Source of the DNA: Aquimarina mytili
GTDB taxonomy: Bacteria; Bacteroidota; Bacteroidia; Flavobacteriales; Flavobacteriaceae
Direction of reading: 5' to 3'
DNA length: 64,000 nt
Assembly: GCF_016735115.1 (NCBI RefSeq)
Contig: NZ_JAERQJ010000001.1
Location: 124,001 to 188,000 of the forward strand
How positions within the stretch are numbered: position 1 is the first letter of the stretch; the number at the start of each line of letters is the position of its first letter. Both the position numbers and the translations under genes were made by a program. Below the pieces are notes generated by a model. The model searched no databases and was not told the DNA's origin. It saw only the letters and a program-made list of their open reading frames with translations. Positions 15,875 to 60,369 of the stretch are shown piece by piece.

Positions 15875-15917
15875 TAAAATTATTTTAAGATCAGCGATCT
15901 AACTATGATATATATCA
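15875..15917 (-). promoter_or_regulatory. FNR-type promoter of the HMA gene
   Basis: Palindrome TGAT-ATAT-ATCA at 15906-15917; on the minus strand TAATTTTA (15882-15875) follows after 23 nt as -7 element. The site lies 32 bp, about three helical turns, from the mlaE site of the same kind. Confidence 0.68.
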
Positions 15918-15937
15918 GTATAAGAAGACGAAGTATC

Positions 15938-15980
15938 TGATTTATGTCATTTTTAATAGGCCTGGCTACTTCTATATTTG
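15938..15980 (+). promoter_or_regulatory. FNR-type promoter of mlaEFD
   Basis: TGAT-TTAT-GTCA at 15938-15949 and a perfect -7 box TATATTTG at 15973-15980, gap 23 nt. The predicted start lies about 20 nt ahead of the mlaE ATG. Confidence 0.68.
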
Positions 15981-16006
15981 AGTAATTATAGAAGTAGACG
16001 TTTTTC

Positions 16007-16789
16007 ATGACTCAATCACTTAACATAGTGAAAAGAACTAAGGCTTTCTTTATAGAGGTTAGGGATTTGTCATTTTTTGCCGGAAAATTTTTCAAAGAAG
16101 TATTTGTGAGGCCTTTCGAATTTCAAGAATTGTTGAAACAGTGCTATCACATGGGTAACCGTTCTTTGCTTTTGGTGGGAGTTACTGGGTTTATTTTAGG
16201 ATTAGTATTTACGCTTCAATCCAGACCCACGCTTATGGAATTTGGAGCAGAATCGTGGATGCCTTCAATGGTTGGGATCTCTATTGTAAGAGAAATTGGT
16301 CCGGTAATCACGGCATTGATTTGTGCGGGTCGCATAGGTTCTGGAATTGGAGCAGAATTGGGATCCATGCGAGTAACAGAGCAAATTGATGCTATGGAAG
16401 TATCTGGAACAAACCCCTTTAAATACTTAGTGATTACACGCATTATGGCTACTACGTTAATGCTACCAATTTTGATAATCTTCGGCGATGCAATTGCATT
16501 ACTAGGTTCTGCCATTGTAGAAAATTTAAAAGGAGCCGTATCATTTCAATTATATTTTAATCAAGTTTTTGATGCGATCGAGTTTAGTGACGTTATACCT
16601 GCCACGGTTAAGTCATTTTTCTTTGGGTTTGCCATTGGATTAGTAGGGTGTTATAAAGGATATAATTGCAAAAAAGGTACTGCTGGAGTTGGAGAGGCAT
16701 CAAATTCTGCAGTAGTGTATACCTCAATGTTATTATTTGTAATTGATTTTATAGCCGTATTTCTGGCTGATATTTTTTTTGAGATTTGA
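16007..16789 (+). CDS. mlaE: MlaE-type ABC permease of phospholipid transport
   Basis: 260 residues with the MlaE/permease domain from about 45: LLLVGVTGFILGLVFTLQ, then REIGPVITALICAGRIGSGIGAELG, the family hallmark, and EASNSAVVYTSM near the C-terminus. About five or six spans. It forms the inner-membrane core of the Mla complex that moves phospholipids between the two membranes and keeps the outer membrane asymmetric. First gene of a three-gene operon with mlaF and mlaD, behind an FNR-type promoter. Confidence 0.93.
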   Translation: MTQSLNIVKRTKAFFIEVRDLSFFAGKFFKEVFVRPFEFQELLKQCYHMGNRSLLLVGVTGFILGLVFTLQSRPTLMEFGAESWMPSMVGISIVREIGPVITALICAGRIGSGIGAELGSMRVTEQIDAMEVSGTNPFKYLVITRIMATTLMLPILIIFGDAIALLGSAIVENLKGAVSFQLYFNQVFDAIEFSDVIPATVKSFFFGFAIGLVGCYKGYNCKKGTAGVGEASNSAVVYTSMLLFVIDFIAVFLADIFFEI

Positions 16790-16790
16790 A

Positions 16791-17543
16791 ATGGAAACTA
16801 AAAAAGAAATAGAACCGGTATTAGAAATTAAAAATCTTCAGAAAAGTTTTGGAGATAATCATGTACTTAATGGTTTTAATTTGCAATTGTTTGAAGGAGA
16901 AAATTTAGTCGTAATGGGTAAATCCGGCTCTGGAAAATCAGTAATGATTAAATGTTTAGTGGGGTTGTTACAAGCAGATAGTGGAAGTATAAGAATAAGA
17001 GGTAAAGATATTACTGCGTTAGGACAAATTGAGTTAGATCTTTTACGTACTGAAATAGGGTTTTTATTTCAAGGAAGTGCTTTATATGATTCTATGACGG
17101 TTCGCGAGAATTTAGAGTTTCCTCTACGAAGACATAAAGACAGGTTAAATATGATAGAGGATACAGAAGCATTAGTCATAGAAGCACTTGAAAACGTGGG
17201 ATTGGAAGATGCCATTGATTTAATGCCTGCAGAGTTGTCTGGAGGAATGCAACGCAGAGTTGCATTAGCTAGGGCTCTTATTTTAAAGCCTAAAATAATT
17301 TTATATGACGAACCTACCACAGGGTTGGATCCAATAACGGCCAAAGAAATCATACAGCTTATGCGAAGCATACAAAAAAAGTATGGAACATCATCTTTAA
17401 TTATTACTCATGATGTGGATTGTGCAAGGGTTATCTCTAATAGAATTATTTTATTAGTTGACGGTATTAACTATGCAGAAGGTACGTATCAAGAATTGTC
17501 TAAATCAGGTGATTCTCAGATAAAGGCATTTTTTAAACATTAG
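16791..17543 (+). CDS. mlaF: MlaF-type ABC ATPase
   Basis: 250 residues from ATG 16791, one base after the mlaE stop; a TTG 12 bp earlier is less likely. Walker A GKSGSGKSVM at about 44-53, Q loop GFLFQGSALYDS, signature LSGGMQRRVALARAL and Walker B IILYDEPTTGLDP, then the H loop TH. The VARENL-like stretch VRENLEFPLR is typical of MlaF. It powers the MlaEFD lipid transporter. Confidence 0.94.
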   Translation: METKKEIEPVLEIKNLQKSFGDNHVLNGFNLQLFEGENLVVMGKSGSGKSVMIKCLVGLLQADSGSIRIRGKDITALGQIELDLLRTEIGFLFQGSALYDSMTVRENLEFPLRRHKDRLNMIEDTEALVIEALENVGLEDAIDLMPAELSGGMQRRVALARALILKPKIILYDEPTTGLDPITAKEIIQLMRSIQKKYGTSSLIITHDVDCARVISNRIILLVDGINYAEGTYQELSKSGDSQIKAFFKH

Positions 17544-17556
17544 AAAACGATAGAAT

Positions 17557-18534
17557 ATGGTTACGATAAAAAAAACAGCTTCACGAAAACTAAAACTTGG
17601 GGTTTTTGTTGTGTTTGGAACCTTACTTCTTATTACAGCATTATACTCCATAGGAAATAGACAAAATCTTTTTGGGAGCAACATTAAAGTCATCACCAAA
17701 TTTAAAAATGTGAACGGACTAGAGCTAGGTAATAATGTTAGATATTCAGGGATTAACATCGGAACCGTTAGCAAAATTCAAATGATTGATGATGCACAAA
17801 TTATTGTAGAGATGATTGTAAAACAAAGCGTAGGGAGATATATAAAAAAAGATGCAGTTGCGACAATAAGCTCAGATGGTTTAGTGGGCAATATGATTGT
17901 AAACATTGTACCAAAAGAGAGTAAAGCACCACCCGTAGTTTCTGGAGACACCATTCAATCCTATAGAAAAATTGGGGCCGATGATATGTTGACTACTCTA
18001 AATGTAACCAATGAAAATGCTGCATTACTCACTGCTGATTTATTAAAAATTACTACTAAAATTACTAATGGCAAGGGCGCATTGGGGTTGTTGATTAATG
18101 ATTCTGTTATGGCTAGAGATCTTAGATTAACCATCCATGAATTGAGAAAAACAAGTACTGAAGCTTCAAAAACAATGAAAGAGTTTAATAAGATTATTAA
18201 ATCAATACACCAAAATGAAAATGTAGCTGGCGTATTACTAAGCGATAGCTTGTCAGGGCAAAAAATGAAAACCATCATAGATAATCTGGAACGATCAAGT
18301 ATTGGAATTGATGAAGTAACCAAAAACTTAAACAGTATTATAAAAGATATTAAGAACGAAGAAGGTACGCTAAACTACTTGATTAATGATCGCGACTTGG
18401 TGAAAAATATAGATTCTACACTGAATAATATTAAAGAAGGTACTGATAAGTTTAATCAAAATATGGAAGCACTAAAACACAACTTCCTTTTTAGACGATA
18501 TTTTAAAAAGAATAAAAACAAATCAGAGCAATAA
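17557..18534 (+). CDS. mlaD: MlaD-type MCE-domain substrate-binding protein
   Basis: 325 residues. One N-terminal anchor helix (about 12-30), an MCE domain at about 35-115 with KFKNVNGLELGNNVRYSGI and GTVSKIQM, and a long helical C-terminal region with repeated LLINDS/LNYLINDR segments (about 190-310). MCE proteins form the hexameric lipid-binding ring of Mla. The C-terminal helices may make a needle toward the outer membrane, as in longer MCE proteins; that part is inference. The end is basic (FKKNKNKSEQ). Confidence 0.92.
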   Translation: MVTIKKTASRKLKLGVFVVFGTLLLITALYSIGNRQNLFGSNIKVITKFKNVNGLELGNNVRYSGINIGTVSKIQMIDDAQIIVEMIVKQSVGRYIKKDAVATISSDGLVGNMIVNIVPKESKAPPVVSGDTIQSYRKIGADDMLTTLNVTNENAALLTADLLKITTKITNGKGALGLLINDSVMARDLRLTIHELRKTSTEASKTMKEFNKIIKSIHQNENVAGVLLSDSLSGQKMKTIIDNLERSSIGIDEVTKNLNSIIKDIKNEEGTLNYLINDRDLVKNIDSTLNNIKEGTDKFNQNMEALKHNFLFRRYFKKNKNKSEQ

Positions 18535-18956
18535 ATCTTCCATAAATACAAATTGATATAAATTGATCACATTTTTATTAGCTTCTAAAATTCTCACTAC
18601 TGTTTTGCATTTTCAAATGGTGGGGAGTGAACTTTTTAAGTAAAAACCGCAATATATTTAAGGTAATATTTCGATTCACCTATAATTATTCTATATATCT
18701 GATTTTCAATTGAATAATTATTTGTTTTCATAATTTCATTTGAAATAAAGTAAGAAACCCCCTTCATAAAATACACTTAAACTGAAAAAACAGCATTTGA
18801 TCGTTAAAAAAATTGTTAATTAACAATAGAATATTTTAACATTTTTTGCCTATTTTCGCAGTCTTTGTGTCTAAAAATGAGGTACATAATCAAGATGTAA
18901 TTCATTTTATAGCAAAGAAATATTACAGTAAATAATTTTAACCCAATATTTAACCT
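18535..18956 (+). other. Intergenic 422 bp: leader and promoter side of the four-gene secreted-protein operon
   Basis: No credible ORF. A plausible promoter is the T-rich -33 type element ending in TTTTTTG at about 18842-18848 with TTTG at 18864-18867, giving a leader of about 85 nt. Two TTGAT motifs near 18553 and 18564 do not form an N4-spaced FNR palindrome. I see no hairpin terminator after mlaD. Confidence 0.4.
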
Positions 18957-26122: not shown

Positions 26123-26165
26123 TGATATTTATCATATTTAATATAGAATTGAGCAGTTATTTTTG
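26123..26165 (+). promoter_or_regulatory. FNR-type promoter of the membrane protein-hpf pair (possibly bidirectional)
   Basis: TGAT-ATTT-ATCA at 26123-26134 and a perfect -7 TATTTTTG at 26158-26165, gap 23 nt. In the other direction GACATTTG at 26099-26092 has the same gap and could serve the HlyD operon. Confidence 0.72.
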
Positions 26166-26576: not shown

Positions 26577-26613
26577 GATTGAATACTTTATAAATTTAAA
26601 TAAATAATTGCAT

Positions 26614-26916
26614 ATGAAAACGAACATTCAATTTGTACAAATGCCAACGAGTGAGGCTATGGAAGGCTATGTGCATGAAAAATTAGATAAGTTTTACAAA
26701 AAATATGATTGGATTATCAAAACTGATGTATTTTTCAAAAAAGAAAACGACCCAAAAGGAAAAGGAAAGATTTGTGACCTGGAGTTAAGTCTGCCTGGCC
26801 CAAAGATATATGCCACATCAAACGAGAAAAATTTTGAACTGGCTTTTAAAGAAAGTTTAAGTGATATTGAGAAACAACTTAAAAAAAGAAAACAAGATAT
26901 GAAACCCTACATGTAG
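26614..26916 (+). CDS. hpf: Ribosome hibernation promoting factor (HPF/RaiA family)
   Basis: 100 residues from ATG 26614. The sigma-54-modulation/HPF fold is visible: MKTNIQFVQMPTSEAMEGYV and LDKFYKKYDWI, then DVFFKKEN, and basic KQLKKRKQDMKPYM at the C-terminus with spaced Lys/Arg. It lacks the dimerising C-terminal domain of long HPF. Short HPF proteins bind the 30S decoding centre and stop translation in resting cells. The position behind an FNR-type promoter suggests induction during oxygen limitation. Confidence 0.88.
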   Translation: MKTNIQFVQMPTSEAMEGYVHEKLDKFYKKYDWIIKTDVFFKKENDPKGKGKICDLELSLPGPKIYATSNEKNFELAFKESLSDIEKQLKKRKQDMKPYM

Positions 26917-26963
26917 TATTGTTTTTATTGAGTTTTGCTGAATGTTACAAAAAACCTAGAAAC

Positions 26964-27006
26964 TGATAATTGTCATATTTTTAGAGGTGTTTATGGAGTA
27001 TTTTAG
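26964..27006 (+). promoter_or_regulatory. FNR-type promoter with no annotated gene downstream
   Basis: TGAT-AATT-GTCA at 26964-26975 and TATTTTAG at 26999-27006 (one mismatch to TAnnTTTG), gap 23 nt. It points to a 200-nt region ending in a terminator with no long ORF. Confidence 0.6.
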
Positions 27007-27120
27007 CAGGGTAGTTGAACAATGATTTTTTGTATTTTTTAGTTAAAAATAAGTTTTTGTTATCGCAATGTGACAAAAACCAAATCGAAGAAGTTAAAAA
27101 TATTTTAGGATGATAATCCA

Positions 27121-27201
27121 ATGTCTTTATTTAGAAATAAATGGAGTATGAAGATTATGCAGATGCTATATAAAAATAATTTCTTCGAAGTAAACAGGTA
27201 G
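27121..27201 (+). CDS. Possible 26-residue small protein
   Basis: ATG at 27121 opens a frame of 26 codons ending in TAG at 27199-27201, which falls inside the terminator stem. AGGA at 27107-27110 could aid initiation. The peptide is basic and hydrophobic (starting MSLFRNKWSMKIMQMLYKNN). Only the surrounding signals support it. Confidence 0.22.
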   Translation: MSLFRNKWSMKIMQMLYKNNFFEVNR

Positions 27202-27226
27202 ATTTTCATTTACCTGTTTCTGTTTT
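27192..27226 (+). terminator. Terminator of the gene-less transcript
   Basis: AAACAGGTA (27192-27200) pairs with TACCTGTTT (27211-27219), then CTGTTTTT follows on the plus strand. The minus strand has no T run after the hairpin, so it serves a plus-strand transcript rather than the convergent gene. Confidence 0.65.
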
Positions 27227-27239
27227 TATGTCTTTATTG

Positions 27240-28448
27240 TCAATGGTCTACCTTCTTCAAGTATTGTTCAATTTTGCTTATCTCTTTTGTTTTTTGAGGA
27301 GCATTATATTTTGACCAAAATGCTGCATTGTATTCGTTTGATTGATTTTCAAGACTATTTCCAATATTCATATTTTGTTGAAAAGGATATTTGTCAAGAT
27401 CATCCACAATTATTTTATTTATAAATAACTCCTTTTTAGGGTTTTTAATAAATAGTAAATTGTTAGGTTTTTTAACATCATAAATTTTCCAGGTATCCTC
27501 CTCTTTTTGATATTTTAGATACATTTTATTATTATACTCTTGATATTCAAAAATGACATTATAATATACTTGTTCTTGTCCGTTTGTTAACCTTCTTTTC
27601 CATGATTTTCCATTATGCGCACTGCGTGTAAGCTCTAATCTTACAAAAGCAAAAGACTCTGTATCAATATATAATATTGCTTTTTGAAAAGGAGGATCTG
27701 TCCCTTTTATTTTATAGACATACTTCTTGTTGTAAAGCAAAATGTCTTCCAATTCATATTTCCATCCATTTTTGCCTTTGATAGGACCGTAATCGAATCG
27801 AATAAAATCGTCTTCGATTAGATCTATAATCGAATTTTTTCTATCCCATTGTTCATTCCATGGGTTTTTTTGTGCGATATATCTATTTCTTATTTCAACT
27901 AATTCTACTTTTGCTTCGGTTTCTATATCTGTAGGCTGATTATAAAACTTAGCCGCGCACTCAAGATATTCTACATAAGTACTATCTTCTTTTTGAAGAT
28001 CTCGAACAAACCCTTCAAGAATATAAGGTTGATTAGGATAGTTTTTGTTAATCTCTTGATACGCCTTTTTAACAATTTGTTTGGCTGTTAGTTTTTTCTT
28101 TTTTGTAGTCTTAATTACTACTTCATCGAGACTTTTAATTTGAGTACTTAGAAATATATTTTGATTGGTTGTAAAATCGCCAATTCTTTTCTCCACAGAA
28201 CCATATCCGAGACTAGATATTACTATGGTATTTGCATCTTTGAAATTAGAAATATGAAAAATAAATTTACCTTCTTCGTTAGAAGTGGTACCTATTGATT
28301 GTCCTTTTAAATATATAGATGCAAATGCAATTGGTTCATTATTTGTTATATCTAAAATCTTACCTGTAATGGTTTGCTCATCATTTTGTGCAATAGTTAT
28401 ACTTGAAAAAAATGAAATAATAGTAAAAACAAAAAATCTAATAGTCAT
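27240..28448 (-). CDS. Secreted carboxypeptidase-regulatory-like (CarboxypepD_reg) protein
   Basis: 402 residues from ATG 28448; a TTG 24 bp upstream gives a poorer start because the signal peptide MTIRFFVFTIISFFSSIT follows the ATG. The regulatory-like beta-sandwich at about 24-105 has TGKILDITNNEPIAFASIYL and ISSLGYGSVEKRI. The rest is a DUF4747/5686-like unknown domain: after KQIVKKAYQEINKNYPNQPY there is a beta-rich region. It resembles the lone CarboxypepD_reg proteins common in Bacteroidota. A -7 box is predicted just upstream. Confidence 0.72.
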   Translation of the reverse strand: MTIRFFVFTIISFFSSITIAQNDEQTITGKILDITNNEPIAFASIYLKGQSIGTTSNEEGKFIFHISNFKDANTIVISSLGYGSVEKRIGDFTTNQNIFLSTQIKSLDEVVIKTTKKKKLTAKQIVKKAYQEINKNYPNQPYILEGFVRDLQKEDSTYVEYLECAAKFYNQPTDIETEAKVELVEIRNRYIAQKNPWNEQWDRKNSIIDLIEDDFIRFDYGPIKGKNGWKYELEDILLYNKKYVYKIKGTDPPFQKAILYIDTESFAFVRLELTRSAHNGKSWKRRLTNGQEQVYYNVIFEYQEYNNKMYLKYQKEEDTWKIYDVKKPNNLLFIKNPKKELFINKIIVDDLDKYPFQQNMNIGNSLENQSNEYNAAFWSKYNAPQKTKEISKIEQYLKKVDH

Positions 28449-28763: not shown

Positions 28764-29387
28764 TTAAAATGAAGTTTCTATGGCATAGAGATTCCAAAGA
28801 TTATTTTTGTTTTTGACTGCAATAAGATCTGATGATAAAAAATGGGAGTGTATAACCGGAGGCTTTCTAAGCCTGTCTTTTTTATACACTAGATGTATGG
28901 GGCCATTTAAAAAAGTTTTACTTTTTCCGGTAGTATCAATAACGATTTCATCATAACTATACGAAACTACTTTCTTATCCAATAAATCATTTCTTCCTAA
29001 TTCTTCTTTAGCGATTTTAAGCACAATGGCATGACCATTTTCAAAATTAGTAGCATTAAGAAATTCTGGTTTAATGACAGTATTACCTTTTTTATCTATA
29101 TAACCAAATTGGGATATACCATTTGCTTTTTGCTGTATACGGCATCTACCATCTTCAAAGTATGGATATGCAGTAGTATTTTTATCGGTTTTAGAAAGCA
29201 CAAGATCGTCTCTATAAGCAATTACTAATGCTCCTTTTTTATCTATAAAGCCCCATTGTGTTCCTTGTCTTACTGCGGCCAGTTCTTCATGAAAAGGAGC
29301 AATCTCATCTATATTTTTGAGTACTTGTGATGATCCCATAAAGGGCAACATCAAAACTAGGTTTATTAAAATGAATATACGTCTCAT
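28764..29387 (-). CDS. Secreted WG-repeat protein
   Basis: 207 residues, signal peptide ending near residue 20 (..FMGSSQ). WG/KWG-type repeats: WGFIDKKGALVIAYRDD at about 45 and FGYIDKKGNTVIKPEFL near 93. WG repeats form beta structures in exported or intracellular binding proteins; the ligand is unknown. The gene has an FNR-type promoter (palindrome with TGAG in one half). Confidence 0.75.
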   Translation of the reverse strand: MRRIFILINLVLMLPFMGSSQVLKNIDEIAPFHEELAAVRQGTQWGFIDKKGALVIAYRDDLVLSKTDKNTTAYPYFEDGRCRIQQKANGISQFGYIDKKGNTVIKPEFLNATNFENGHAIVLKIAKEELGRNDLLDKKVVSYSYDEIVIDTTGKSKTFLNGPIHLVYKKDRLRKPPVIHSHFLSSDLIAVKNKNNLWNLYAIETSF

Positions 29388-29413: not shown

Positions 29414-29456
29414 TAAAATTACCAATGGATAAGGAGAGATAAAATGAGAAATATCA
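29414..29456 (-). promoter_or_regulatory. FNR-type promoter of the WG-repeat gene
   Basis: TGAG-AAAT-ATCA at 29445-29456 (one half is TGAG) and, on the minus strand, TAATTTTA at 29421-29414, gap 23 nt. Confidence 0.55.
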
Positions 29457-29807: not shown

Positions 29808-29850
29808 TGACAATTATCATATTAATTAAGGAATACATGATCTAATTTTG
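29808..29850 (+). promoter_or_regulatory. FNR-type promoter of the first Usp gene
   Basis: TGAC-AATT-ATCA at 29808-29819 and a perfect -7 TAATTTTG at 29843-29850, gap 23 nt, 23 nt ahead of the ATG at 29873. Confidence 0.72.
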
Positions 29851-33407: not shown

Positions 33408-33908
33408 TTATTGTTTAAGACATTTTTTAATGAGTTTATAAGCCCAGTCGTAATGACTAGAAGTTGCTGAAATAAGGTATGAAGCTAATGATGTTGTGCC
33501 TGTCCATGTGTACCTTCTTTTTTCAAATAACTCTTTTTCGGTGTGGTGATTTATTATTTCTTGTAATTCTTCAAAAGATTTTTCGAGTAGGATTTTCACC
33601 TCTTCAAAATTAATTTCCTGATATTTTTTCCATATGTCTTTATTAAGTTCAGGGGTGGTTTTCCAAGTGTATCCTTTTGCTGGCATATCGGGTTTTTCTC
33701 CTGTCATTCCAACAGTATACCAATCGAACATCATAATATGCCAGTGATGAAGATGAGCCAATACATCTCTGACGTTTCGGTTTAAATATCCTTTGGGAAA
33801 TTCGGTTTTTAGCTTTTCTTCAGAGAGTGAATTGATATAATTCCATAAGTTTTTATAATTCTGATTGCTTACGCTTAGTAATTCATTTTTGGTTTTTGGT
33901 CTTGGCAT
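33408..33908 (-). CDS. ClbS/DfsB-family four-helix-bundle protein
   Basis: 166 residues with the DinB-like layout of ClbS/DfsB: KTKNELLSVSNQNYKNLW, RNVRDVLAHLHHWHIMMFDWY (metal-type His), KGYTWKTTPELN and TSSHYDWAYKLIKKC at the end. ClbS protects cells from colibactin; DfsB-type proteins have unknown roles. It follows an FNR-type promoter, so it is likely induced at low oxygen, and it is followed by the lipoprotein gene. Confidence 0.85.
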   Translation of the reverse strand: MPRPKTKNELLSVSNQNYKNLWNYINSLSEEKLKTEFPKGYLNRNVRDVLAHLHHWHIMMFDWYTVGMTGEKPDMPAKGYTWKTTPELNKDIWKKYQEINFEEVKILLEKSFEELQEIINHHTEKELFEKRRYTWTGTTSLASYLISATSSHYDWAYKLIKKCLKQ

Positions 33909-33930: not shown

Positions 33931-33973
33931 TAAATGTAACAGAGATCCAACGAAAAAAATATGATATTGATCA
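33931..33973 (-). promoter_or_regulatory. FNR-type promoter of the DfsB-like gene
   Basis: TGAT-ATTG-ATCA at 33962-33973 and TACATTTA on the minus strand at 33938-33931, gap 23 nt; the ATG at 33908 is about 20 nt further. Confidence 0.68.
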
Positions 33974-34037: not shown

Positions 34038-34322
34038 TTAATAAAGTCCGTTACCAAGAATAATCAACGTATTTACGACCAAACTGGCGATTAATAGATC
34101 TAATACTAGTTTGGGTTTTTGAACGGTTAAAATTGCAGCATTATGGGCACTACAAACAACAACACTTAAAAAAACCAGAAACATTTGGATCGTGCTATTT
34201 CCATTAAGTAATGTTGCCATAATAGCAATAGAACCTAAACAAGTAGAAGCGATAATTGCAAGAGCAGAGTATCCGATATAATTTTCTGAAAAGTCAGCAT
34301 TTATTTTAGCATATAGTGTCAT
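34038..34322 (-). CDS. Small membrane protein, unknown
   Basis: 94 residues with three hydrophobic segments (about 18-40, 45-62, 70-92) and a short polar N-terminus. No named family. An FNR-type promoter lies upstream. The context is stress proteins of a respiratory regulon. Confidence 0.65.
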   Translation of the reverse strand: MTLYAKINADFSENYIGYSALAIIASTCLGSIAIMATLLNGNSTIQMFLVFLSVVVCSAHNAAILTVQKPKLVLDLLIASLVVNTLIILGNGLY

Positions 34323-34345: not shown

Positions 34346-34388
34346 TAAAAGTAGTAGTCAGGGATTTTCTAAAATATGAGAAATATCA
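34346..34388 (-). promoter_or_regulatory. FNR-type promoter of the small membrane protein
   Basis: TGAG-AAAT-ATCA at 34377-34388 and TACTTTTA on the minus strand at 34353-34346, gap 23 nt. The palindrome overlaps the end of the TerB-like gene (ends 34386). Confidence 0.5.
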
Positions 34389-34790
34389 GTTTTCAAAAGT
34401 GAGCTTCAATTTTCCCAGCATAATTAATTCAGATTTATTTTTCCCAGAAAAAGCCCCAGCGATAGTATTGGCAGTTTCCCAAATTAGTTGTTTGATACGC
34501 TCAGAGAAACGAGGTTTATGTTGGTTATAGAAGGATTCAAATTCTTGAAAACAGGATTCTGCAGTAGGAGTTTCATAATCCATCCAATCAAAAACAATTT
34601 CGATCTGAAAAGCTGCATCTACACCAAACTCATCTACTACATCATCTACTTGCAGCCATTTCGATTTTACAATTTTTCTCAAAGAATCATATTCTGATTC
34701 CCGAACTACTTTATCAGAAGCGGCGATGGCATAGAATAATTTTCCGAGGTTTTGATAAAATTTGATTCCTATATTTTGAGTGATGTTCAT
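34386..34790 (-). CDS. TerB-like protein
   Basis: 134 residues, all-helical, resembling TerB/tellurite-resistance-type bundles: NLGKLFYAIAASDKVVRESEY with the acidic metal-like site and FDWMDYETPTAESCFQEF. No signal peptide. TerB-like domains bind metal ions and serve stress roles; this copy is unlike the tellurite operon type. A minus-strand FNR-type promoter lies at 34817-34859. Confidence 0.65.
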   Translation of the reverse strand: MNITQNIGIKFYQNLGKLFYAIAASDKVVRESEYDSLRKIVKSKWLQVDDVVDEFGVDAAFQIEIVFDWMDYETPTAESCFQEFESFYNQHKPRFSERIKQLIWETANTIAGAFSGKNKSELIMLGKLKLTFEN

Positions 34791-34816: not shown

Positions 34817-34891
34817 TAAAATTAAGGGGTTTATAACAAGAATTTTATGATATTGGTCAGTTCTGGTAATAAACCAAAATCCGTACATTTG
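34817..34891. promoter_or_regulatory. Bidirectional FNR-type promoter: PAS kinase (+) and TerB-like gene (-)
   Basis: One palindrome, TGAT-ATTG-GTCA at 34848-34859. On the plus strand TACATTTG at 34884-34891 (gap 24 nt) leads almost directly into the ATG at 34896. On the minus strand TAATTTTA at 34824-34817 has the 23-nt gap and serves the TerB-like gene. The site implies that the PAS kinase-regulator pair is under the same control as its putative targets. Confidence 0.7.
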
Positions 34892-34895
34892 AATA

Positions 34896-36131
34896 ATGAA
34901 AGTTTTTGAAAAACAAAGCAATGTTTTTAGGATATTATCCGAGGCCGTTTCTGAGGGGATTATTGTAGTAAACAAAGATCAGATTGTGGTTGCTACCAAT
35001 GGATCGGCTAATGAAATCTTTGGATATGATGAAGAGGAACTTTTGGGAAAACCTCTAAATACATTAATACCTCAAAAGTACCACCATAGTCATAGTGGTC
35101 ATTTTGAAAATTTTGTGAAACATAGTGAGAAACGCCATATGGGGCGTGGAAGAGATCTTTATGGAGTTCGAAAAGATGGAACCGAATTTCCTTTAGAAGC
35201 GGGTCTTAATCCATTTACTATATATGATAATAATTATGTTATGGCTTTGGTGATTGATATCACAGAGCGAAAAGAACATGAAAAGAAAATACAGGAGTTA
35301 AACGCAGTACTCGAGCACAAAGTAGAAGAACGTACCGAGGAATTGCACCGTACAATCCAGGAGTTAAAAGAAGAAGTAAAACTTCGTAAGGAAGCAGAAG
35401 CCAAAGCCAAAGAATCATTAAAAAAAGAACGTGATCTTAACGAATTAAAAACGAAGTTTTTATCAATGGTTTCTCATGAGTTTAAAACACCATTAGGAGG
35501 GATTCTTACATCGGCAACTTTAATAGGAAAATATACTAAAGAAGAACAACAAGAAAAAAGAGACAAGCATCTTAATACCATTAAAAATAAGGTGAAATAC
35601 CTGGATAATATTCTTACCGATTTTTTATCTGTTGAGCGATTAGAAACAGGTAAAGTAAGTTATAAATTTAGTCAGTTCCCACTGAGTAAAGTAATCAATG
35701 AGGTAGTATATAATGCCAATATGTTACTTAAAGATGGACAAAGAATCAACTACCCAAATGATATCGATGAGTATACAATTGAGTTTGATGAAAAGATCTT
35801 AGAATTGATATTGTCAAATCTAATTAATAATGCTATAAAGTATTCTAGCGAGAATACGATAATAGATTTGCAAGTAAACTTTGAAAAAGACGTTCTTATA
35901 TTTAAGGTTATAGATCAAGGTCGGGGAATCCCTAAAAAAGAACAAGAGTTTATTTTTAAACGATATTTCAGGGCAGAAAATGCCTTGCTAGACCAAGGAA
36001 CTGGAATAGGATTAAACATAGTTAAAAATCACTTAGAAAACCTTGGAGGGACTATTACATTTACTAGTCATGAAAATCAAGGCTCTATATTTATTGTTAA
36101 AATACCAATAGTAAACAATCACAAAAAATGA
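34896..36131 (+). CDS. PAS-domain sensor histidine kinase, FixL-like
   Basis: 411 residues, no membrane span, so cytosolic. The PAS domain at about 8-125 has the FixL-like pattern: Y62, H63, H66 and G68 in QKYHHSHSGHF, and GRGRDLYGVRKDGTEFP. H66 aligns with the heme His of rhizobial FixL and R86 with its distal Arg, but these residues occur in many PAS domains without heme, so oxygen sensing is only possible. A coiled coil (about 125-180) leads to H194 in MVSHEFKTPLGG, then an ATPase domain with NLINNAIKYS, DQGRGIPKK and GTGIGLNIVKNH. It overlaps the regulator by 4 bp. The ATG may start a leaderless mRNA. Confidence 0.9.
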   Translation: MKVFEKQSNVFRILSEAVSEGIIVVNKDQIVVATNGSANEIFGYDEEELLGKPLNTLIPQKYHHSHSGHFENFVKHSEKRHMGRGRDLYGVRKDGTEFPLEAGLNPFTIYDNNYVMALVIDITERKEHEKKIQELNAVLEHKVEERTEELHRTIQELKEEVKLRKEAEAKAKESLKKERDLNELKTKFLSMVSHEFKTPLGGILTSATLIGKYTKEEQQEKRDKHLNTIKNKVKYLDNILTDFLSVERLETGKVSYKFSQFPLSKVINEVVYNANMLLKDGQRINYPNDIDEYTIEFDEKILELILSNLINNAIKYSSENTIIDLQVNFEKDVLIFKVIDQGRGIPKKEQEFIFKRYFRAENALLDQGTGIGLNIVKNHLENLGGTITFTSHENQGSIFIVKIPIVNNHKK

Positions 36132-37189
36132 TGAAAACCATTCTATTAATTGAAGATGACGTTGCCCTTAGAGAAAACACTGCCGAGTTATTAGAACTTT
36201 CAGATTATAATGTAATTACTGCTCCAAACGGAAAGATTGGAATCATAAAAGCAAAAGAAGAAAAACCTGATATTGTTGTTTGTGATATTATGATGCCCGA
36301 GGTTGATGGTTATGGAGTTTTAGAGGCATTATCTCATGATAAAAATACCAACCAAATTCCTTTTATATTCTTATCAGCAAAAACAGAACATAAAGAAGTA
36401 CGAAAAGGGATGGATTTAGGAGCCGATGATTATCTTACTAAACCATTTGAGGAAGAAGAATTACTAAGTGCGATAGAAAGTCGGTTGGCCAAAGCTCAGA
36501 TCATCGCTAGTCTACTTGATGAGTATAATAATCAACCCAAAGAGGATAAAAAAGAGGATGGACTTAGAAACCTTCATGAACTCAAGAATTTTTTTGATGA
36601 TCATGGAGAGATCGCCGAATATAAAAAAGGAAAAATAATTTATAAAGAAGGTGAACATTCAAACAAGATTTATCTAATTCTAAAAGGTGTAATCAAATCT
36701 CATAAGATGGATGAAAATGGTAAAGAGTTGATTACAGCATTATACAAGGCCGATGATTTTCTGGGGTTTACTTCATTTACAGATAATGTCCCATATCAAG
36801 AATCCGCCACAGCAGTCGAGGATGCCCAATTGGCAGGAATATCTAAGAGCAATCTAAAGGATATTTTAGACAAGAGTAAAAATATTTCTCTGGAGTTAAT
36901 GGAGTTGCTTACTGATAACCTATCAGAAATAAAAGACCAATTACTACAAATGGCGTATAGTTCGGTGCGAAAAAAAACCGCACAAACTATTCTTCAATTT
37001 GCACAAGTGCTTAATAAAAAGCCCGAAGATAATATCAAAATTTCTCGTAACGATTTGGCAAGTGTTGCGGGAATAGCCACAGAGAGTTTGATAAGGACTC
37101 TATCGAGTTTCAAAAAAGACGGTTTAATAGATATAGAAGGGCGTAATATAAAAATCCTCGATTTGGCAGGTCTTCAACTAGTTGAATAA
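36128..37189 (+). CDS. Response regulator fused to a CRP/FNR transcription factor (REC-CRP)
   Basis: 353 residues. Receiver domain at about 3-120: D10/D11, phospho-acceptor D53 in VVCDIMMPEVDG, the SAKTEHKEVRKG segment and K in YLTKPFEEE. A cyclic-nucleotide-binding type fold follows (about 150-265), then a CRP winged helix (about 290-345) whose recognition helix has E319 and R323 (ESLIR), equal to the Glu and Arg that contact TGA in FNR and CRP. No cysteines lie in the CRP part, so it cannot hold an FNR iron-sulfur cluster; phosphorylation by the adjacent PAS kinase is the likely switch. It is the best candidate in the window to bind the FNR-type sites. Confidence 0.93.
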   Translation: MMKTILLIEDDVALRENTAELLELSDYNVITAPNGKIGIIKAKEEKPDIVVCDIMMPEVDGYGVLEALSHDKNTNQIPFIFLSAKTEHKEVRKGMDLGADDYLTKPFEEEELLSAIESRLAKAQIIASLLDEYNNQPKEDKKEDGLRNLHELKNFFDDHGEIAEYKKGKIIYKEGEHSNKIYLILKGVIKSHKMDENGKELITALYKADDFLGFTSFTDNVPYQESATAVEDAQLAGISKSNLKDILDKSKNISLELMELLTDNLSEIKDQLLQMAYSSVRKKTAQTILQFAQVLNKKPEDNIKISRNDLASVAGIATESLIRTLSSFKKDGLIDIEGRNIKILDLAGLQLVE

Positions 37190-37210: not shown

Positions 37211-37253
37211 TGATTTTTATCATACTTTTCATCAAAGCATCCTGATACATTTG
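37211..37253 (+). promoter_or_regulatory. FNR-type promoter of Usp and hemN
   Basis: TGAT-TTTT-ATCA at 37211-37222 and perfect TACATTTG at 37246-37253, gap 23 nt; the ATG of the Usp gene is about 20 nt further. Confidence 0.72.
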
Positions 37254-45605: not shown

Positions 45606-45800
45606 TTATGATTGATTATTTTTAGTGGGTACCGAAGATTTTTCTTTACCTTCTTTTACGAGTTCATCGTCAAAAAGCATACGTATAGAGGGTGTATAGG
45701 TATCATCATATTGACCATTTCTTACAGATAGTATAAATGCTATGAAAAAGATGATGGCAACGATGATACTAATCGTTAAGAGTACATAAATTACACCCAT
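45606..45800 (-). CDS. ccoS: CcoS oxidase maturation protein
   Basis: 64 residues with one N-terminal span (ISIIVAIIFFIAFILSVR) and QYDDTYTPSIRMLFDDE, the CcoS signature. Needed for cofactor insertion in cbb3. First gene of the cco operon after the FNR-type promoter at 45819-45861; the gap to ccoNO is one base. Confidence 0.9.
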   Translation of the reverse strand: MGVIYVLLTISIIVAIIFFIAFILSVRNGQYDDTYTPSIRMLFDDELVKEGKEKSSVPTKNNQS

Positions 45801-45818: not shown

Positions 45819-45861
45819 CAAAAGTAGAGGTGAACATTTTCCTAAAAAATGACTTTTATCA
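45819..45861 (-). promoter_or_regulatory. FNR-type promoter of the cco operon
   Basis: TGAC-TTTT-ATCA at 45850-45861 and perfect TACTTTTG on the minus strand at 45826-45819, gap 23 nt, 18 nt ahead of the ccoS ATG. Confidence 0.75.
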
Positions 45862-52284: not shown

Positions 52285-53568
52285 TTATTCATTTTCCTTT
52301 TTAAAATCTGTAGTAAAAAGATTAGGATTGATGATTAATTGTGCCCAACCCCAATTATTGGTATTATCATGTGGTCTTCCTCCTTTTATAAGCGACATAC
52401 TTTCTGAGGCGAACATATGTGAATACCCTAGGTTCAGTTTTACATTTTTTATGATTTTTTGGGTAAAAACAAGATCTAATTCAGTGCCCAGATACTTATC
52501 TTCATCACCTGTTAAATCTGCATTAGCCATAAAATAGTGCCCTTTTAGTAACAACGTAGATTTTTCTCCGGTTGTAAAAACGACTTTAGCATACAGGTCA
52601 TTTAATCCAACATTATTAGCATGATTTCCTACATAGAAATAATCCATATAACCGTTGAATTTATGATTAGTTCCATAAAGAGGGAAGAAAGATTTGTTTT
52701 TATCATCCCCATCTTGATCTGTACCACTTAGGATTTCTATACCTAATCCATATAGCGTTTTTTTGGGTTTGTATGTAGCTTCTAAAGAAGCTTGATAAGC
52801 GCTTAAATCGGTATCTGCATTTGCCTTGCCGAACTGATAATAAATGCTACCTGCGATATTGACTTTTTTGATGGGAAAAGTGAAATAAGAACCAGCGGTT
52901 TGTCTATAAAAAGTTCCATCAGGCTCATCATTATCGACTCCGGTAAATTTTTGAAATCCGGTATTCAAAAACAGAAAGCTTGCAGAAGTTTTTTCCCAGT
53001 TCTTTTTTAGATAGGCATACTGCATTACTTTATACGTAAAGAATCCCTGAATATTAAATCCTGTTCCTTCGTTGGGTTGTCCTTCTTGACTAAAAGCGGC
53101 TCCAATATCTGCCTTGAAGTCTTCACTTTCATATTTAATTAACGCGGCATCATGAAAGCGCCCTTGCATAGCCCAATCTAACCCACCAAAAATACGTTGA
53201 TCATCATAAGAAATAACTTGTCTACCCGCTTTTAAAGACCAATTTTGGTCAAGAAATATTTGCCCCCAAGCCTGGAATAAGGAAAAGGAGTCGTTTCCAT
53301 CATTAAGTAATATTTGGCGTGTATCTCCCCAAGTGCTTACATCCTGAATACTAAGAAACAGTTTTAACTTTTCTTGCTGGTATCCAACATTAAGTCGCGA
53401 ACGCTGAGTAACAAATGCTGCTGGATCTGCATTATCAGGAAATAAATTATTAAATCCGTGACGATATTCGAATCGTGATCGCAGATCTGCATCAATTATT
53501 AATTGAGAAAATGAGTTGGTTGTAAAAAGGACAAGAAATAGAACAAGAAGAGATTTAATAACTTTCAT
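52285..53568 (-). CDS. Alginate-export-like outer-membrane barrel of the nap operon
   Basis: 427 residues with a signal peptide ending near residue 21 (..TNSFSQ). The alginate_exp-type barrel starts LIIDADLRSRFEYRHGF and has RSRLNVGYQQEKLKLFLSIQDV, WSLKAGRQVISYDDQRIFGG and a strand rich end. First gene of the nap operon, so it may be the outer-membrane channel for nitrate or nitrite, which is inference; its family name does not mean alginate here. Confidence 0.8.
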   Translation of the reverse strand: MKVIKSLLVLFLVLFTTNSFSQLIIDADLRSRFEYRHGFNNLFPDNADPAAFVTQRSRLNVGYQQEKLKLFLSIQDVSTWGDTRQILLNDGNDSFSLFQAWGQIFLDQNWSLKAGRQVISYDDQRIFGGLDWAMQGRFHDAALIKYESEDFKADIGAAFSQEGQPNEGTGFNIQGFFTYKVMQYAYLKKNWEKTSASFLFLNTGFQKFTGVDNDEPDGTFYRQTAGSYFTFPIKKVNIAGSIYYQFGKANADTDLSAYQASLEATYKPKKTLYGLGIEILSGTDQDGDDKNKSFFPLYGTNHKFNGYMDYFYVGNHANNVGLNDLYAKVVFTTGEKSTLLLKGHYFMANADLTGDEDKYLGTELDLVFTQKIIKNVKLNLGYSHMFASESMSLIKGGRPHDNTNNWGWAQLIINPNLFTTDFKKENE

Positions 53569-53593: not shown

Positions 53594-53636
53594 CAAATGT
53601 TGATCTAAAATTTTTGTTAAAACATGATATTTATCA
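53594..53636 (-). promoter_or_regulatory. FNR-type promoter of the nap operon
   Basis: TGAT-ATTT-ATCA at 53625-53636 and AACATTTG on the minus strand at 53601-53594 (one mismatch to TAnnTTTG), gap 23 nt. Confidence 0.7.
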
Positions 53637-56714: not shown

Positions 56715-56757
56715 CAAAATTGAAAAAGTATCACACAATATACTATGATAAATGTCA
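56715..56757 (-). promoter_or_regulatory. FNR-type promoter of ccoI
   Basis: TGAT-AAAT-GTCA at 56746-56757 and CAATTTTG on the minus strand at 56722-56715, gap 23 nt, 18 nt ahead of the ATG. The first base of the -7 element is off consensus. Confidence 0.65.
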
Positions 56758-56769: not shown

Positions 56770-56812
56770 TGACAAAAATCATAGTTTCTACCTTTGTCAT
56801 TATCTAGATTTG
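56770..56812 (+). promoter_or_regulatory. FNR-type promoter of the Usp array
   Basis: TGAC-AAAA-ATCA at 56770-56781 and perfect TAGATTTG at 56805-56812, gap 23 nt, 26 nt ahead of the first Usp ATG. It sits back to back with the ccoI site, 12 bp apart. Confidence 0.74.
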
Positions 56813-58541: not shown

Positions 58542-58566
58542 TTTGAAAAACTTAAAATATAAACCA

Positions 58567-59415
58567 ATGAAACGAATTTTGATTCCTACCGATTTTTCAG
58601 AAAATGCATGGAATACCATATTGTATGCTATGCAGTTGTATGGAGATGTTTCTTGTGAGTTTTATATTCTTAACTCATTTGATGTTACTCCTGTGCAACT
58701 TATTAGTACGGTGAGTTCGCAACGAGTAGGCCACTACTATGAAGCCGTTAAAATGAAATCTGCACAGACATTGGAAATGGTAATGGCTGATATCATAAAT
58801 TCTAATCCTGATGAGAAACATGTTTTTAAATCTATCTCAAAACCAGGTACTTTGATAGAAGCAATGGAAGAGTCAATTAATGAGAACCATTTTGATATGA
58901 TTATTATAGGTACAAAAGGAGCTACCGGCGCTAAAGAAGTTTTTTTAGGAAGCAATACTCAAAAGGTTATTAGAAATATTGATGCCTGTCCAATTTTAGT
59001 TGTACCAGAGGATTCTTTTTTTGATAACATTACCGAAATAGCCTTTGCAACAGATTTTGAAAGAATGTACTATAATTCAGAGATAAAGCCAATAGTTGAT
59101 CTTGCCAAAAGTCATAACGCCACTGTAAGAATGATACATGTATATGATACGCCAAAGTTAAATCAGATACAGCGTTATAATTCGAATAATCTCGAGCATT
59201 ATTTCAAGTCGATTCCCTATGATTTTCATGTCATCCCTGATTTTTCTACTATAGAAAGAGCCATTCAGGCATTTATCGAAGAACTTGAAATCGATATGTT
59301 GGTAATGATTAATTATAAACACAGCTTTATAGAACGACTTACAAGAGAAGCAGTGATTAAAAAAATAACATTTCATACCGCCATTCCTTTTTTAATTATT
59401 CCTTCAGATACCTGA
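58567..59415 (+). CDS. Universal stress protein 3 of the array
   Basis: 282 residues from ATG 58567; a TTG at 58543 gives eight extra residues but lacks the family start RILIPTDFSENAWNTI. Motif GTKGATGAKEVFLGSNTQKV in domain one; domain two ends EELEIDMLVMINYKHSFIERL. It follows Usp 2 by 25 bp; the stop codon region overlaps the next FNR-type site (59413). Confidence 0.9.
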   Translation: MKRILIPTDFSENAWNTILYAMQLYGDVSCEFYILNSFDVTPVQLISTVSSQRVGHYYEAVKMKSAQTLEMVMADIINSNPDEKHVFKSISKPGTLIEAMEESINENHFDMIIIGTKGATGAKEVFLGSNTQKVIRNIDACPILVVPEDSFFDNITEIAFATDFERMYYNSEIKPIVDLAKSHNATVRMIHVYDTPKLNQIQRYNSNNLEHYFKSIPYDFHVIPDFSTIERAIQAFIEELEIDMLVMINYKHSFIERLTREAVIKKITFHTAIPFLIIPSDT

Positions 59416-59455
59416 GAATTGTCATAGTATTCTTCAGATTTTAGAAATAGTTTTA
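59413..59455 (+). promoter_or_regulatory. FNR-type promoter of Usp 4
   Basis: TGAG-AATT-GTCA at 59413-59424 (its TGA is the Usp 3 stop) and TAGTTTTA at 59448-59455, gap 23 nt. Confidence 0.55.
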
Positions 59456-59480
59456 TGTATCACTTATAATACTATTTGTC

Positions 59481-60329
59481 ATGAAACGAATACTTATACC
59501 AACCGATTTTTCAGAAAATGCATATAGTGCACTTTTCTATGCTACCCGTTTATTTCAGCACCAGAAATGCCAGTTTTATATCTTGAATACTTTTGATGTA
59601 AATACTCCCGTTTTAACCAGCCGGATTGATACAAGTAAAGGGGATTTGTTATATCATCAGCTAAGTAATGAATCTCAAGACAGGCTTTTAGAAACGTACC
59701 ATTCAATTGTTAGAGATGCAGATGAGTTTGATCACACTTTTGAAACTATTTCTGTTTCCAAAAAATTATCTGAAACCATTAATAAAACCATAAAAAGCAA
59801 GAATATTGATCTTGTAGTTATGGGAACCAAGGGAGCAAGTGGTGCTAAAGAGATTTTTATGGGTAGTAATACGGTTAGAGCAATTCAAAAAATTAAAGAT
59901 TGTCCAATATTGGCTATACCTGATGAATTTGATTTTGAAAAACTTGTAGATATCGCCTTTGCAACCGATTTCAGAAGATTTTATAGTAAAGAAGAACTTG
60001 AACCTCTTTTACAAATGGCCTCGTTATTTGATTCAAATATTAGGATCATGCACATCCATGAAGAAGAAAAGTTGGATGAGTTGCAAGAACATAATTTTAA
60101 GAAGCTTAAAGAACATCTTGAAGGATACAATTATACATTACATTGGATGTCGCGGTTTGACAAAAAAACGGAAGTGATTAATACGTTCATAGACAAGATG
60201 AATATAAATATGCTAGCCATGCTATACTACAAACATAGTTTTATAGAAAGCATTACTCACGAACCTGTTATTAAAAAGATAGGATTTCATGCATCAATAC
60301 CATTTCTGGTAATTCCAACGGCCAGCTGA
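59481..60329 (+). CDS. Universal stress protein 4 of the array
   Basis: 282 residues, own FNR-type promoter. Motif GTKGASGAKEIFMGSNTVRA in the first domain; second domain without the loop, ending DKMNINMLAMLYYKHSFIES. Most similar to Usp 3 by eye (IERL/IES tail, NYKHSF/YYKHSF), which suggests recent duplication. Confidence 0.92.
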   Translation: MKRILIPTDFSENAYSALFYATRLFQHQKCQFYILNTFDVNTPVLTSRIDTSKGDLLYHQLSNESQDRLLETYHSIVRDADEFDHTFETISVSKKLSETINKTIKSKNIDLVVMGTKGASGAKEIFMGSNTVRAIQKIKDCPILAIPDEFDFEKLVDIAFATDFRRFYSKEELEPLLQMASLFDSNIRIMHIHEEEKLDELQEHNFKKLKEHLEGYNYTLHWMSRFDKKTEVINTFIDKMNINMLAMLYYKHSFIESITHEPVIKKIGFHASIPFLVIPTAS

Positions 60330-60369
60330 TAATTATCATAGTTTCCAAGAGTTATGACCCATAAATTTA
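60327..60369 (+). promoter_or_regulatory. FNR-type promoter of Usp 5
   Basis: TGAT-AATT-ATCA at 60327-60338 (its TGA is the Usp 4 stop) and TAAATTTA at 60362-60369, gap 23 nt. Confidence 0.65.

What the first reader, a model, noticed from the sequence alone, without database searches (positions are those of the whole stretch)
15875..60369. Sixteen FNR/CRP-type palindromes with a constant 23-nt gap to a Bacteroidota -7 box
Seen directly: TGAy-N4-rTCA (three with TGAG) at 15906, 15938, 26123, 26964, 29445, 29808, 33962, 34377, 34848, 37211, 45850, 53625, 56746, 56770, 59413 and 60327. In all sixteen a TAnnTTTG-like element follows at 23 nt (24 nt at 34848 plus direction, 23 in its minus direction). 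Seven of the elements are perfect TAnnTTTG, seven are TAnnTTTA. The distance puts the palindrome centre near -41.5, a class-II activator position. They link cbb3 oxidase, Nap, FixI, HemN, all Usp genes, HPF, mlaEFD and others into one regulon of about 45 kb. That a single factor binds them is inference.
Basis: partly seen in the sequence, partly recalled or inferred. Interest (0 to 1): 0.93.

Follow-up and report, generated by a model that had tools for sequence, protein, structure and literature searches.

The report
One switch for a low-oxygen island
Sixteen palindromes spread over 45 kb of a flavobacterial genome each sit exactly 23 bases before a promoter box, a layout repeated across its family, and their genes are likely all switched on by one phosphorylation-controlled regulator encoded in their midst, which is predicted to respond to falling oxygen.

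Summary
Confirmed, and far beyond chance. All 16 palindromes are present, each with a -7 box exactly 23 nt away. Strict composites in the region: 10, against 0.017 expected. In twenty 20-kb stretches from relatives the box follows at 23 nt 96 times, at 22 nt 0, at 24 nt 3. Fourteen of 17 promoters have an ATG 14-22 nt after the inferred start. The half-site is [A/C]TGAY in 32 of 32, neither FNR's TTGAT nor CRP's TGTGA. The likely reader is REC-CRP (36128-37189), a CRP/FNR protein fused to a receiver domain and paired with a FixL-like PAS kinase. In 11 genomes without a cysteine-type FNR match, 91 of 160 composites lie within 65 kb of its gene, 6.2 expected. Median composites per genome: 27 with both regulators, 15 REC-CRP only, 10 Cys-FNR only, 1 neither. 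The island runs on to about 59 kb. Site 26964 fronts no protein gene but a conserved, covarying ~220-nt RNA candidate, which has the same promoter in other genera. Binding, phosphorylation and oxygen sensing are inferred. A new variant of a known kind: FixL-FixJ-FixK logic in two proteins.

The parts
15875..15917 (-). Composite promoter: palindrome 15906-15917, box TAATTTTA 15875-15882; faces a 72-aa ORF (15586-15804), ATG at +66
15938..15980 (+). Composite promoter: palindrome 15938-15949, box TATATTTG; faces mlaE (16007), ATG at +22
26123..26165 (+). Composite promoter: box TATTTTTG; faces 26190 (128 aa) then HPF (26608-26916), ATG at +20
26964..27006 (+). Composite promoter: box TATTTTAG; faces no ORF over 28 aa, but the RNA candidate
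27011..27232 (+). Candidate structured small RNA of the regulon; intrinsic terminator 27192-27219
29414..29456 (-). Composite promoter: palindrome 29445-29456 (TGAG type), box TAATTTTA; faces WG-repeat protein 28764-29387, ATG at +22
29808..29850 (+). Composite promoter: box TAATTTTG; faces Usp 29873, ATG at +18
33931..33973 (-). Composite promoter: palindrome 33962-33973, box TACATTTA; faces DUF1706 33408-33908, ATG at +18
34346..34388 (-). Composite promoter: palindrome 34377-34388 (TGAG type), box TACTTTTA; faces 34038-34322, ATG at +19
34817..34859 (-). Composite promoter: palindrome 34848-34859, box TAATTTTA at 23 nt; faces 34386-34790, ATG at +22
34848..34891 (+). Same palindrome, kinase side: box TACATTTG at 24 nt; kinase ATG at the inferred +1
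34896..36131 (+). PAS histidine kinase, PAS closest to FixL among solved structures
36128..37189 (+). REC-CRP: receiver + cNMP-binding fold + HTH_Crp_2; likely reader of the sites
37211..37253 (+). Composite promoter: box TACATTTG; faces Usp 37272 then HemN 38156, ATG at +14; kept in 76 of 80 loci
45819..45861 (-). Composite promoter: palindrome 45850-45861, box TACTTTTG; faces a 64-aa CcoS-like ORF (named by eye, 45606-45800), then ccoNO, ccoP, ccoG
53594..53636 (-). Composite promoter: palindrome 53625-53636, box AACATTTG; faces Alginate_exp 52285-53568, ATG at +21
56715..56757 (-). Composite promoter: palindrome 56746-56757, box CAATTTTG; faces FixI-like P-type ATPase with start re-set to 56696 (802 aa), ATG at +14, then PNPOx
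56770..56812 (+). Composite promoter: box TAGATTTG; faces Usp 56839, 57690 and 58543, ATG at +22
59413..59455 (+). Composite promoter: TGAG type, box TAGTTTTA; faces Usp 59481, ATG at +21
60327..60369 (+). Composite promoter: box TAAATTTA; faces Usp 60396, ATG at +22

Best explanation
These are predicted activator-dependent promoters in which a CRP/FNR-family dimer, most likely the receiver-domain fusion REC-CRP encoded at 36128-37189 and predicted to be phosphorylated by the PAS kinase beside it, would bind the palindrome [A/C]TGAY-N4-RTCA[T/G] centred near -41.5 and recruit sigma-A RNA polymerase to the TAnnTTTG box 23 nt downstream. Shown from sequence: the palindromes, the exact spacing here and in relatives, the short leaders, the clustering around the regulator gene, the intact phospho-acceptor aspartate and the kinase neighbour. 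Inferred: which protein binds, that phosphorylation switches it, that the FixL-like PAS senses oxygen (perhaps through heme), and that the response prepares for low oxygen or dormancy (cbb3 oxidase and its assembly, HemN, Usp, HPF, Hsp20). In relatives that also have a cysteine-type FNR both proteins would read one operator; no such FNR was found in this genome, so REC-CRP would act without it. Site 26964 would add a small RNA to the regulon.
For: Spacing: 96 at 23 nt against 51 over the 60 other spacings in relatives, 35 in further stretches, 10 against 0.017 expected here. Leaders of 14-22 nt at 14 of 17 promoters. Family: 2131 composites against 81 reversed controls in 149 genomes. Clustering: 91 of 160 composites within 65 kb of REC-CRP, 6.2 expected, 11 genomes. 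Co-occurrence with REC-CRP and Cys-FNR: medians 27, 15, 10, 1. The Usp promoter beside REC-CRP kept in 76 of 80 loci. Receiver E9, D10 and D53 kept in 38 of 38 loci (32 genomes) and a kinase in the same locus in 38 of 38. PAS closest to FixL. The only other close relatives of this CRP domain here, L013/L016, have TTGAY sites. Gene content is microaerobic and stress-related; F. psychrophilum raises cbb3 under oxygen limitation (PMC9723704, passages).
Against: No start site, binding or expression datum for this genome. Co-occurrence is not corrected for ancestry, and four 'neither' genomes have 5-29 composites. Composites are not clustered in G143, which has REC-CRP and no Cys-FNR match, and few are near it in G036 (3 of 14) and G105 (2 of 12), where its contig is short or it sits near a contig end. 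Fifty-three genomes have Cys-FNR and no REC-CRP yet carry the operator (median 10), so the operator is not specific to REC-CRP. Several other CRP-family proteins in the genome were not excluded. The FixL R206 position is not kept in the kinase.
Confidence: 0.68

Rival explanations
1. Another CRP/FNR-family protein of this genome reads the sites, such as the L013/L016 pair at C1:660-662 kb or one of the more distant paralogues, and REC-CRP controls few or none of them.
For: Nine HTH_Crp_2 matches in the genome, eight over the cut-off. L013 and L016 share the helix residues E-S-L-x-R with REC-CRP. One paralogue (L018) lies at the right end of the island.
Against: L013-type genes carry TTGAY-N4-RTCAA nearby in 5 of 5 loci, with no box at 23 nt; such flanks never have the box at 23 nt in relatives' loci (0 of 12). 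No Cys-FNR match in a genome 99.96% complete. Clustering is around REC-CRP.
Confidence: 0.15
2. REC-CRP reads the sites but the signal is not oxygen: a general stress, redox or starvation response, like a dormancy regulon, in which the cbb3 genes are one part.
For: Seven Usp genes in the window and one beyond, HPF, Hsp20. Heme binding by the PAS is unproven and the R206 position varies.
Against: cbb3, FixI-like ATPase, CcoG-like protein, HemN and a Nap-like cluster are typical low-oxygen genes. PAS closest to FixL, with the aligned His kept in 33 of 34 ungapped rows.
Confidence: 0.13
3. The pattern is a by-product of AT-rich promoter DNA and chance palindromes.
For: The region is AT-rich (window G+C 33%).
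Against: 10 strict composites against 0.017 expected; six control palindromes give 0 or 1 at 23 nt, and no other spacing of the real one exceeds 5; reversed pattern 81 against 2131.
Confidence: 0.01

Closest known systems
Rhizobial FixL-FixJ-FixK and hFixL-FxkR-FixK, with FnrN (PMC7888657, abstract and passages)
   Same: A FixL-type kinase feeding a CRP/FNR-family activator of cbb3 genes, and a second, cysteine-type FNR reading the same operator.
   Different: There three proteins, here the receiver is fused to the CRP/FNR part; operator TTGAT-N4-ATCAA there, [A/C]TGAY-N4-RTCA[T/G] here; other sigma-A box; heme in this kinase unproven.
E. coli FNR and CRP class-II promoters (recalled)
   Same: Activator palindrome centred at -41.5, overlapping the -35 region.
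   Different: Base before TGA is A or C here; reader has a receiver and no N-terminal cysteine cluster; box is TAnnTTTG.
Sigma-A promoters of Flavobacterium psychrophilum (PMC9723704, outline and passages)
   Same: TAnnTTTG box at -12 to -5; cbb3 up under oxygen limitation.
   Different: The main text has no mention of FNR, CRP or a palindrome (0 occurrences each); its supplements were not read.
DosR dormancy regulon of mycobacteria (recalled)
   Same: Two-component control of Usp, Hsp20 and hypoxia genes.
   Different: DosR has a LuxR-type output domain; no homology is claimed.
FnrS small RNA of E. coli (recalled)
   Same: A small RNA driven by a promoter of an FNR-family regulon.
   Different: No Rfam match here; targets unknown.

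Membership tests
Class-II CRP/FNR-dependent promoter | Palindrome at one fixed distance from the -10/-7 element | tested here: met
   23 nt: 96, 22 nt: 0, 24 nt: 3; 35 of 84 palindromes in further stretches
Class-II CRP/FNR-dependent promoter | Centre at -41.5 from a mapped transcription start | not testable with these tools
   Inferred from the box position in F. psychrophilum (PMC9723704); no TSS data for this genome
FNR regulon (E. coli type) | Half-site TTGAT | tested here: not met
   A or C before TGA in 32 of 32 half-sites
FNR regulon (E. coli type) | Reader with an N-terminal cysteine cluster | tested here: not met
   REC-CRP begins with a receiver and its sequence has one Cys in all; no Cys-FNR match in this genome at E<=1e-45
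CRP regulon | Half-site TGTGA | tested here: not met
   No G before TGA in 32 half-sites
FixL-FixJ-FixK system | FixL-type heme PAS kinase | tested here: inconclusive
   PAS best matched by FixL (E 2.3e-16); aligned His in 33 of 34 ungapped rows, R220 position in 31 of 37, R206 position not kept
FixL-FixJ-FixK system | Separate FixJ and FixK proteins | tested here: not met
   Receiver and CRP/FNR part are one 353-aa protein
FixL-FixJ-FixK system | Targets include cbb3 oxidase and its assembly genes | tested here: met
   Site 45850 fronts the cbb3 genes, 56746 the FixI-like ATPase; expression not tested
Two-component response regulator | Receiver with phospho-acceptor Asp, and a kinase beside it | tested here: met
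   D53 in 38 of 38 loci (32 genomes), kinase in the same locus in 38 of 38; kinase ORF ending at the REC-CRP start in 78 of 80 loci
FnrS RNA family | Match to an Rfam model | tested here: not met
   No Rfam match at E<=1 in 26900-27300 or at gathering score in 15000-64000

The most novel reading that the evidence does not exclude
Bacteroidota run low-oxygen life with a phosphorelay-switched CRP: FixL, FixJ and FixK logic is compressed into a heme-PAS kinase and a receiver-CRP fusion that reads an operator of its own, [A/C]TGAY-N4-RTCA[T/G], at a rigid class-II position. It shares that operator with an Fe-S FNR in relatives and stands in for that FNR here, and it controls a 59-kb dormancy-and-respiration island that includes a previously undescribed FnrS-like structured RNA.
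Probability: 0.5. Interest if true: 0.85.

Novelty: new variant of a known kind. Interest (0 to 1): 0.74.

Why it matters
It gives Flavobacteriaceae a testable promoter grammar for activator control (operator, gap and box), with 2131 matches in 149 sampled genomes. It names a candidate master regulator of low-oxygen survival in this family. It offers a natural comparison of two sensing modes, phosphorelay and probable Fe-S cluster, acting through one operator, and a link between the recognition helix and the base before TGA. It also predicts a regulon RNA with a fixed promoter layout.

Tried and rejected
Rejected: chance or AT-richness; classical FNR or CRP half-sites; L013/L016 as readers. 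A variable-gap search of the own genome with the perfect box gave 22 matches, 6 of them at 23 nt. The strict composite at C23:844581 lies inside an ORF with TTGA/TCAA flanks and is taken as chance. The RNA model found nothing at E<=0.1 in 80 REC-CRP loci (about 3 kb each side) and nine other stretches; in 20 larger REC-CRP stretches it hit two and in 12 more one at E<1e-4. Weaker hits L203 (0.018), L059 (0.059) and L050 (0.12) had no promoter and were dropped, and so was one copy pair member of L068, which has no palindrome upstream. A tree of CRP domains left the sister group of REC-CRP unsure. Structure prediction was not run.

Literature: searches (an open-access library, listings only) showed no paper on a receiver-CRP regulator or on this operator in Bacteroidota. 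PMC9723704 was seen as outline and passages, PMC7888657 as abstract and passages, PMC1274295 as passages and section 8. E. coli FNR, CRP and FnrS, DosR, the FixL residue numbers and the CRP helix numbering are recalled.
Full report
OBSERVATION. All sixteen palindromes lie at the stated places. I scored TAnnTTTG at spacings of 15 to 31 nt on both strands. For each site there is one strand on which the best box is at exactly 23 nt (tied with 15 nt at 56746), and that strand faces a downstream ORF except at 26964. At 34848 the minus side is at 23 and the plus side at 24; at 56746 the opposite strand has a perfect box at 31 nt. Boxes at 23 nt: six perfect TAnnTTTG, seven TAnnTTTA, three others. 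In first-order Markov sequence strict composites average 0.017 (maximum 1 in 300) and 10 are observed; relaxed ones average 0.14 (maximum 2) and 17 are observed. In the own genome the strict composite occurs 16 times against 2 for the pattern read backwards; 12 of the 16 lie in C1:139875-199061, about 59 kb or 1.2% of the genome (the window is C1:124001-188000). Of the other four, three are intergenic with an ORF 27-48 nt downstream and one lies inside an ORF. The strict pattern misses TGAG sites and odd boxes.

FAMILY-WIDE SPACING. Twenty stretches of up to 20 kb around REC-CRP in relatives (392,426 bases) hold 296 oriented TGAY-N4-RTCA palindromes. TAnnTTTR follows at 23 nt 96 times, at 22 nt never, at 24 nt three times, and 51 times in all over the 60 other spacings from 0 to 60. 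Six control palindromes gave 0 or 1 at 23 nt. Twelve further stretches, seven from genomes not in that set and five beside stretches already used, gave 35 at 23 nt and at most 2 at any other spacing. Over 149 genomes of the family the composite totals 2131 against 81 for the reversed pattern. In a sample of 296 genomes of the phylum 150 have at least one match, with most of the high counts in this family. The sigma-A box of F. psychrophilum is placed at -12..-5 (PMC9723704, passages), so a 23-nt gap centres the palindrome at -41.5. The logo of the 96 sites shows no TTG at -33.

LEADERS. With the start placed by that rule, an ATG of an ORF begins 14-22 nt later at 14 of 17 promoters (the 16 sites, 34848 counted twice). 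The exceptions are 15906 (66 nt), 26964 (no ORF over 28 aa) and the kinase side of 34848 (0 nt). The rule re-sets the start of the FixI-like ATPase to 56696 and shows a 64-aa CcoS-like ORF (named by eye) between site 45850 and ccoNO.

OPERATOR. All 32 half-sites of the sixteen have A or C before TGA; the other 25 TGA-N6-TCA palindromes of the window have A or C in 33 of 50 half-sites. Facing the gene, the upstream flank is mostly C and the downstream flank T (relatives: C 64%, A 31%; T 96%). In relatives' stretches the box at 23 nt follows 91 of 250 palindromes with such flanks on both sides, 5 of 34 with them on one side, and 0 of 12 with T or G before both TGA halves. By alignment with E. 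coli CRP from memory, REC-CRP has T, E, I and R at positions 180, 181, 184 and 185. A published comparison links residue 180 to the base that is G in CRP sites and residue 181 to an A (PMC1274295, section 8).

REGULATOR. REC-CRP (353 aa) has a receiver, a cNMP-binding fold and HTH_Crp_2. E9, D10 and D53 are kept in 38 of 38 loci, which are 32 genomes because six were fetched twice, and a homologous PAS kinase is in the same locus in 38 of 38. In 80 named-record loci a kinase-length ORF ends at the REC-CRP start in 78. The kinase's PAS is closest to FixL among solved structures (1d06, E 2.3e-16), and its H66 aligns with the residue recalled as FixL's heme ligand. That position is His in 33 of 34 ungapped rows, the R220 position is Arg in 31 of 37, and the R206 position varies (rows include the six repeats). 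Heme binding is plausible and unproven. Full-length REC-CRP occurs in 66 of 149 family genomes (my count, used; four of these have only a 43-46% identical form), and at E<=1e-60 in 43 of 296 genomes of the phylum. The best named-record matches are Aquimarina, 89% identical and below; the window's own record may be left out there.

TWO READERS, ONE OPERATOR. A stand-alone relative (query from L078) matches 88 of 149 genomes at E<=1e-45, not this one. Of 12 distinct such proteins looked for by an N-terminal CxxC filter, 10 were found with it and two (G107, G109) were not. Its recognition helix (ATESAIRLLS in three of the five read) is close to that of REC-CRP (ATESLIRTLS in 30 of 38 rows). Median composites per genome: both 27 (n=35), REC-CRP only 15 (n=31), Cys-FNR only 10 (n=53), neither 1 (n=30); exceptions among 'neither' are G048 (29), G147 (16), G138 (10) and G051 (5). 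I listed all composites in 10 of the 30 other REC-CRP-only genomes, chosen for high REC-CRP identity. With this genome, 91 of 160 lie within 65 kb of REC-CRP where 6.2 are expected; G036 (3 of 14) and G105 (2 of 12) are weak, with REC-CRP near a contig end or on a short contig. G143, REC-CRP-only but not among the ten, is scattered: 3 of 20 within 65 kb. A third type (L013/L016 here) has TTGAY-N4-RTCAA near its gene in 5 of 5 loci, with no box at 23 nt.

REGULON. Window members by site: a 72-aa ORF; mlaEFD; 26190-HPF; the RNA; a WG-repeat protein; seven Usp genes, two of them downstream in a run; DUF1706; 34038; 34386; perhaps the kinase and REC-CRP; HemN behind a Usp; the cbb3 genes; Alginate_exp; FixI-like ATPase with PNPOx. 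Operon structure is inferred from spacing. Right of the window: L001:654 (box TAATTTTC), Hsp20 (L001:1157) and Usp (L001:11550). In the 20 relatives' stretches 97 composites (TGAG allowed) most often face relatives of Usp37272 (18), 34386 (12), Usp56839 (11) and HPF (9); 10 face no gene found and 9 a gene without a homologue in my set. The Usp promoter next to REC-CRP is present at exactly 23 nt in 76 of 80 loci; the other four have no palindrome there. Palindrome core and box were selection criteria in that count; the T after the palindrome (76 of 76) and the N4 (mean 82%) were not, and the spacer averages 55% identity.

AUTOREGULATION. The palindrome before the kinase faces away from it at 23 nt in 52 of 80 loci, and toward it at 24 nt, with the ATG 47-48 nt from the palindrome start, in 24 of 80, all of them among the 52. 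Two loci gave no kinase ORF and ten no palindrome. The off-by-one, leaderless kinase promoter may be a weaker one; that is inference.

THE RNA. Behind site 26964 there is an intrinsic terminator at 27192-27219. Of 37 genomes of the genus 16, this one included, match the stretch at E<=0.001, some only over 32-39 bases. Nine, this one included, have the palindrome, a box (TACTTTAG in six) at exactly 23 nt and 231-240 nt to the hairpin. In three more the palindrome with a box at 23 nt lies 255-259 nt before the segment I cut, so farther up; in a fourth (L190) the box at 23 nt is poor. The fold has z -5.0. On 13 sequences 97.2% of pair cells pair and 14 of 42 pairs change on both sides; no shuffle of 500 does as well on four of five measures and 3 do on the fifth. 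A covariance model of them finds copies in G034 (two), G143 (two) and G049 (one), other genera, at E 1.6e-13 to 4.2e-5. Four of those five have CTGAY-N4-RTCAT with a box of 5 of 6 (TATATTGG, TAATTTAG, TAATTTGG, TAAATTAG) at exactly 23 nt. The model holds no promoter sequence, so this supports both. Only stretches around REC-CRP were searched outside the genus, and most had no copy. Rfam has no match. That it is an sRNA, and its targets, are open.

MECHANISM AND LIMITS. Most likely the kinase, active when oxygen is low, phosphorylates REC-CRP, which binds at -41.5 and activates sigma-A promoters of respiration, heme, stress and hibernation genes. Sequence cannot show binding, phosphorylation, signal or direction. 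The single-reader claim rests on clustering and co-occurrence, which share ancestry.

Noticed in passing
window 59413 and 60327: Both palindromes begin with the TGA stop codon of the Usp gene upstream (ORFs 58543-59415 and 59481-60329), so operator and stop codon overlap.
   Followed up: no
window 34884-34896; 24 of 80 loci among L094-L173: The kinase-facing box is at 24 nt, not 23, and would give a leaderless kinase mRNA; the offset is kept in 24 loci.
   Followed up: partly
window 27011-27232; L068:7317-7895; L069:7864-8363; L208:14076-14271: Structured RNA candidate, in two neighbouring copies in G034 and G143, with the same promoter layout.
   Followed up: partly
G000:C1:659952-662740 (L082, L070): A pair of REC-CRP-like stand-alone CRP genes with TTGAY-N4-RTCAA palindromes nearby, a separate circuit.
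   Followed up: partly
matches of 36-48% identity: A more divergent REC-CRP form occurs in several other families of the class and as a second copy in some genomes of this family; its operator is unknown.
   Followed up: no
L001:7801-8433: A CRP-family gene (L018) with a different recognition helix sits near the right end of the island, beside a TauE-type transporter, a rhodanese protein and a Usp gene.
   Followed up: no
G413: A genome of a distant family in the phylum has 28 composites and 0 control matches, an isolated outlier.
   Followed up: no
window 61805-62653: A gene with ATP-cone and Mrr-type nuclease domains follows the Usp genes; function in this setting unclear.
   Followed up: no
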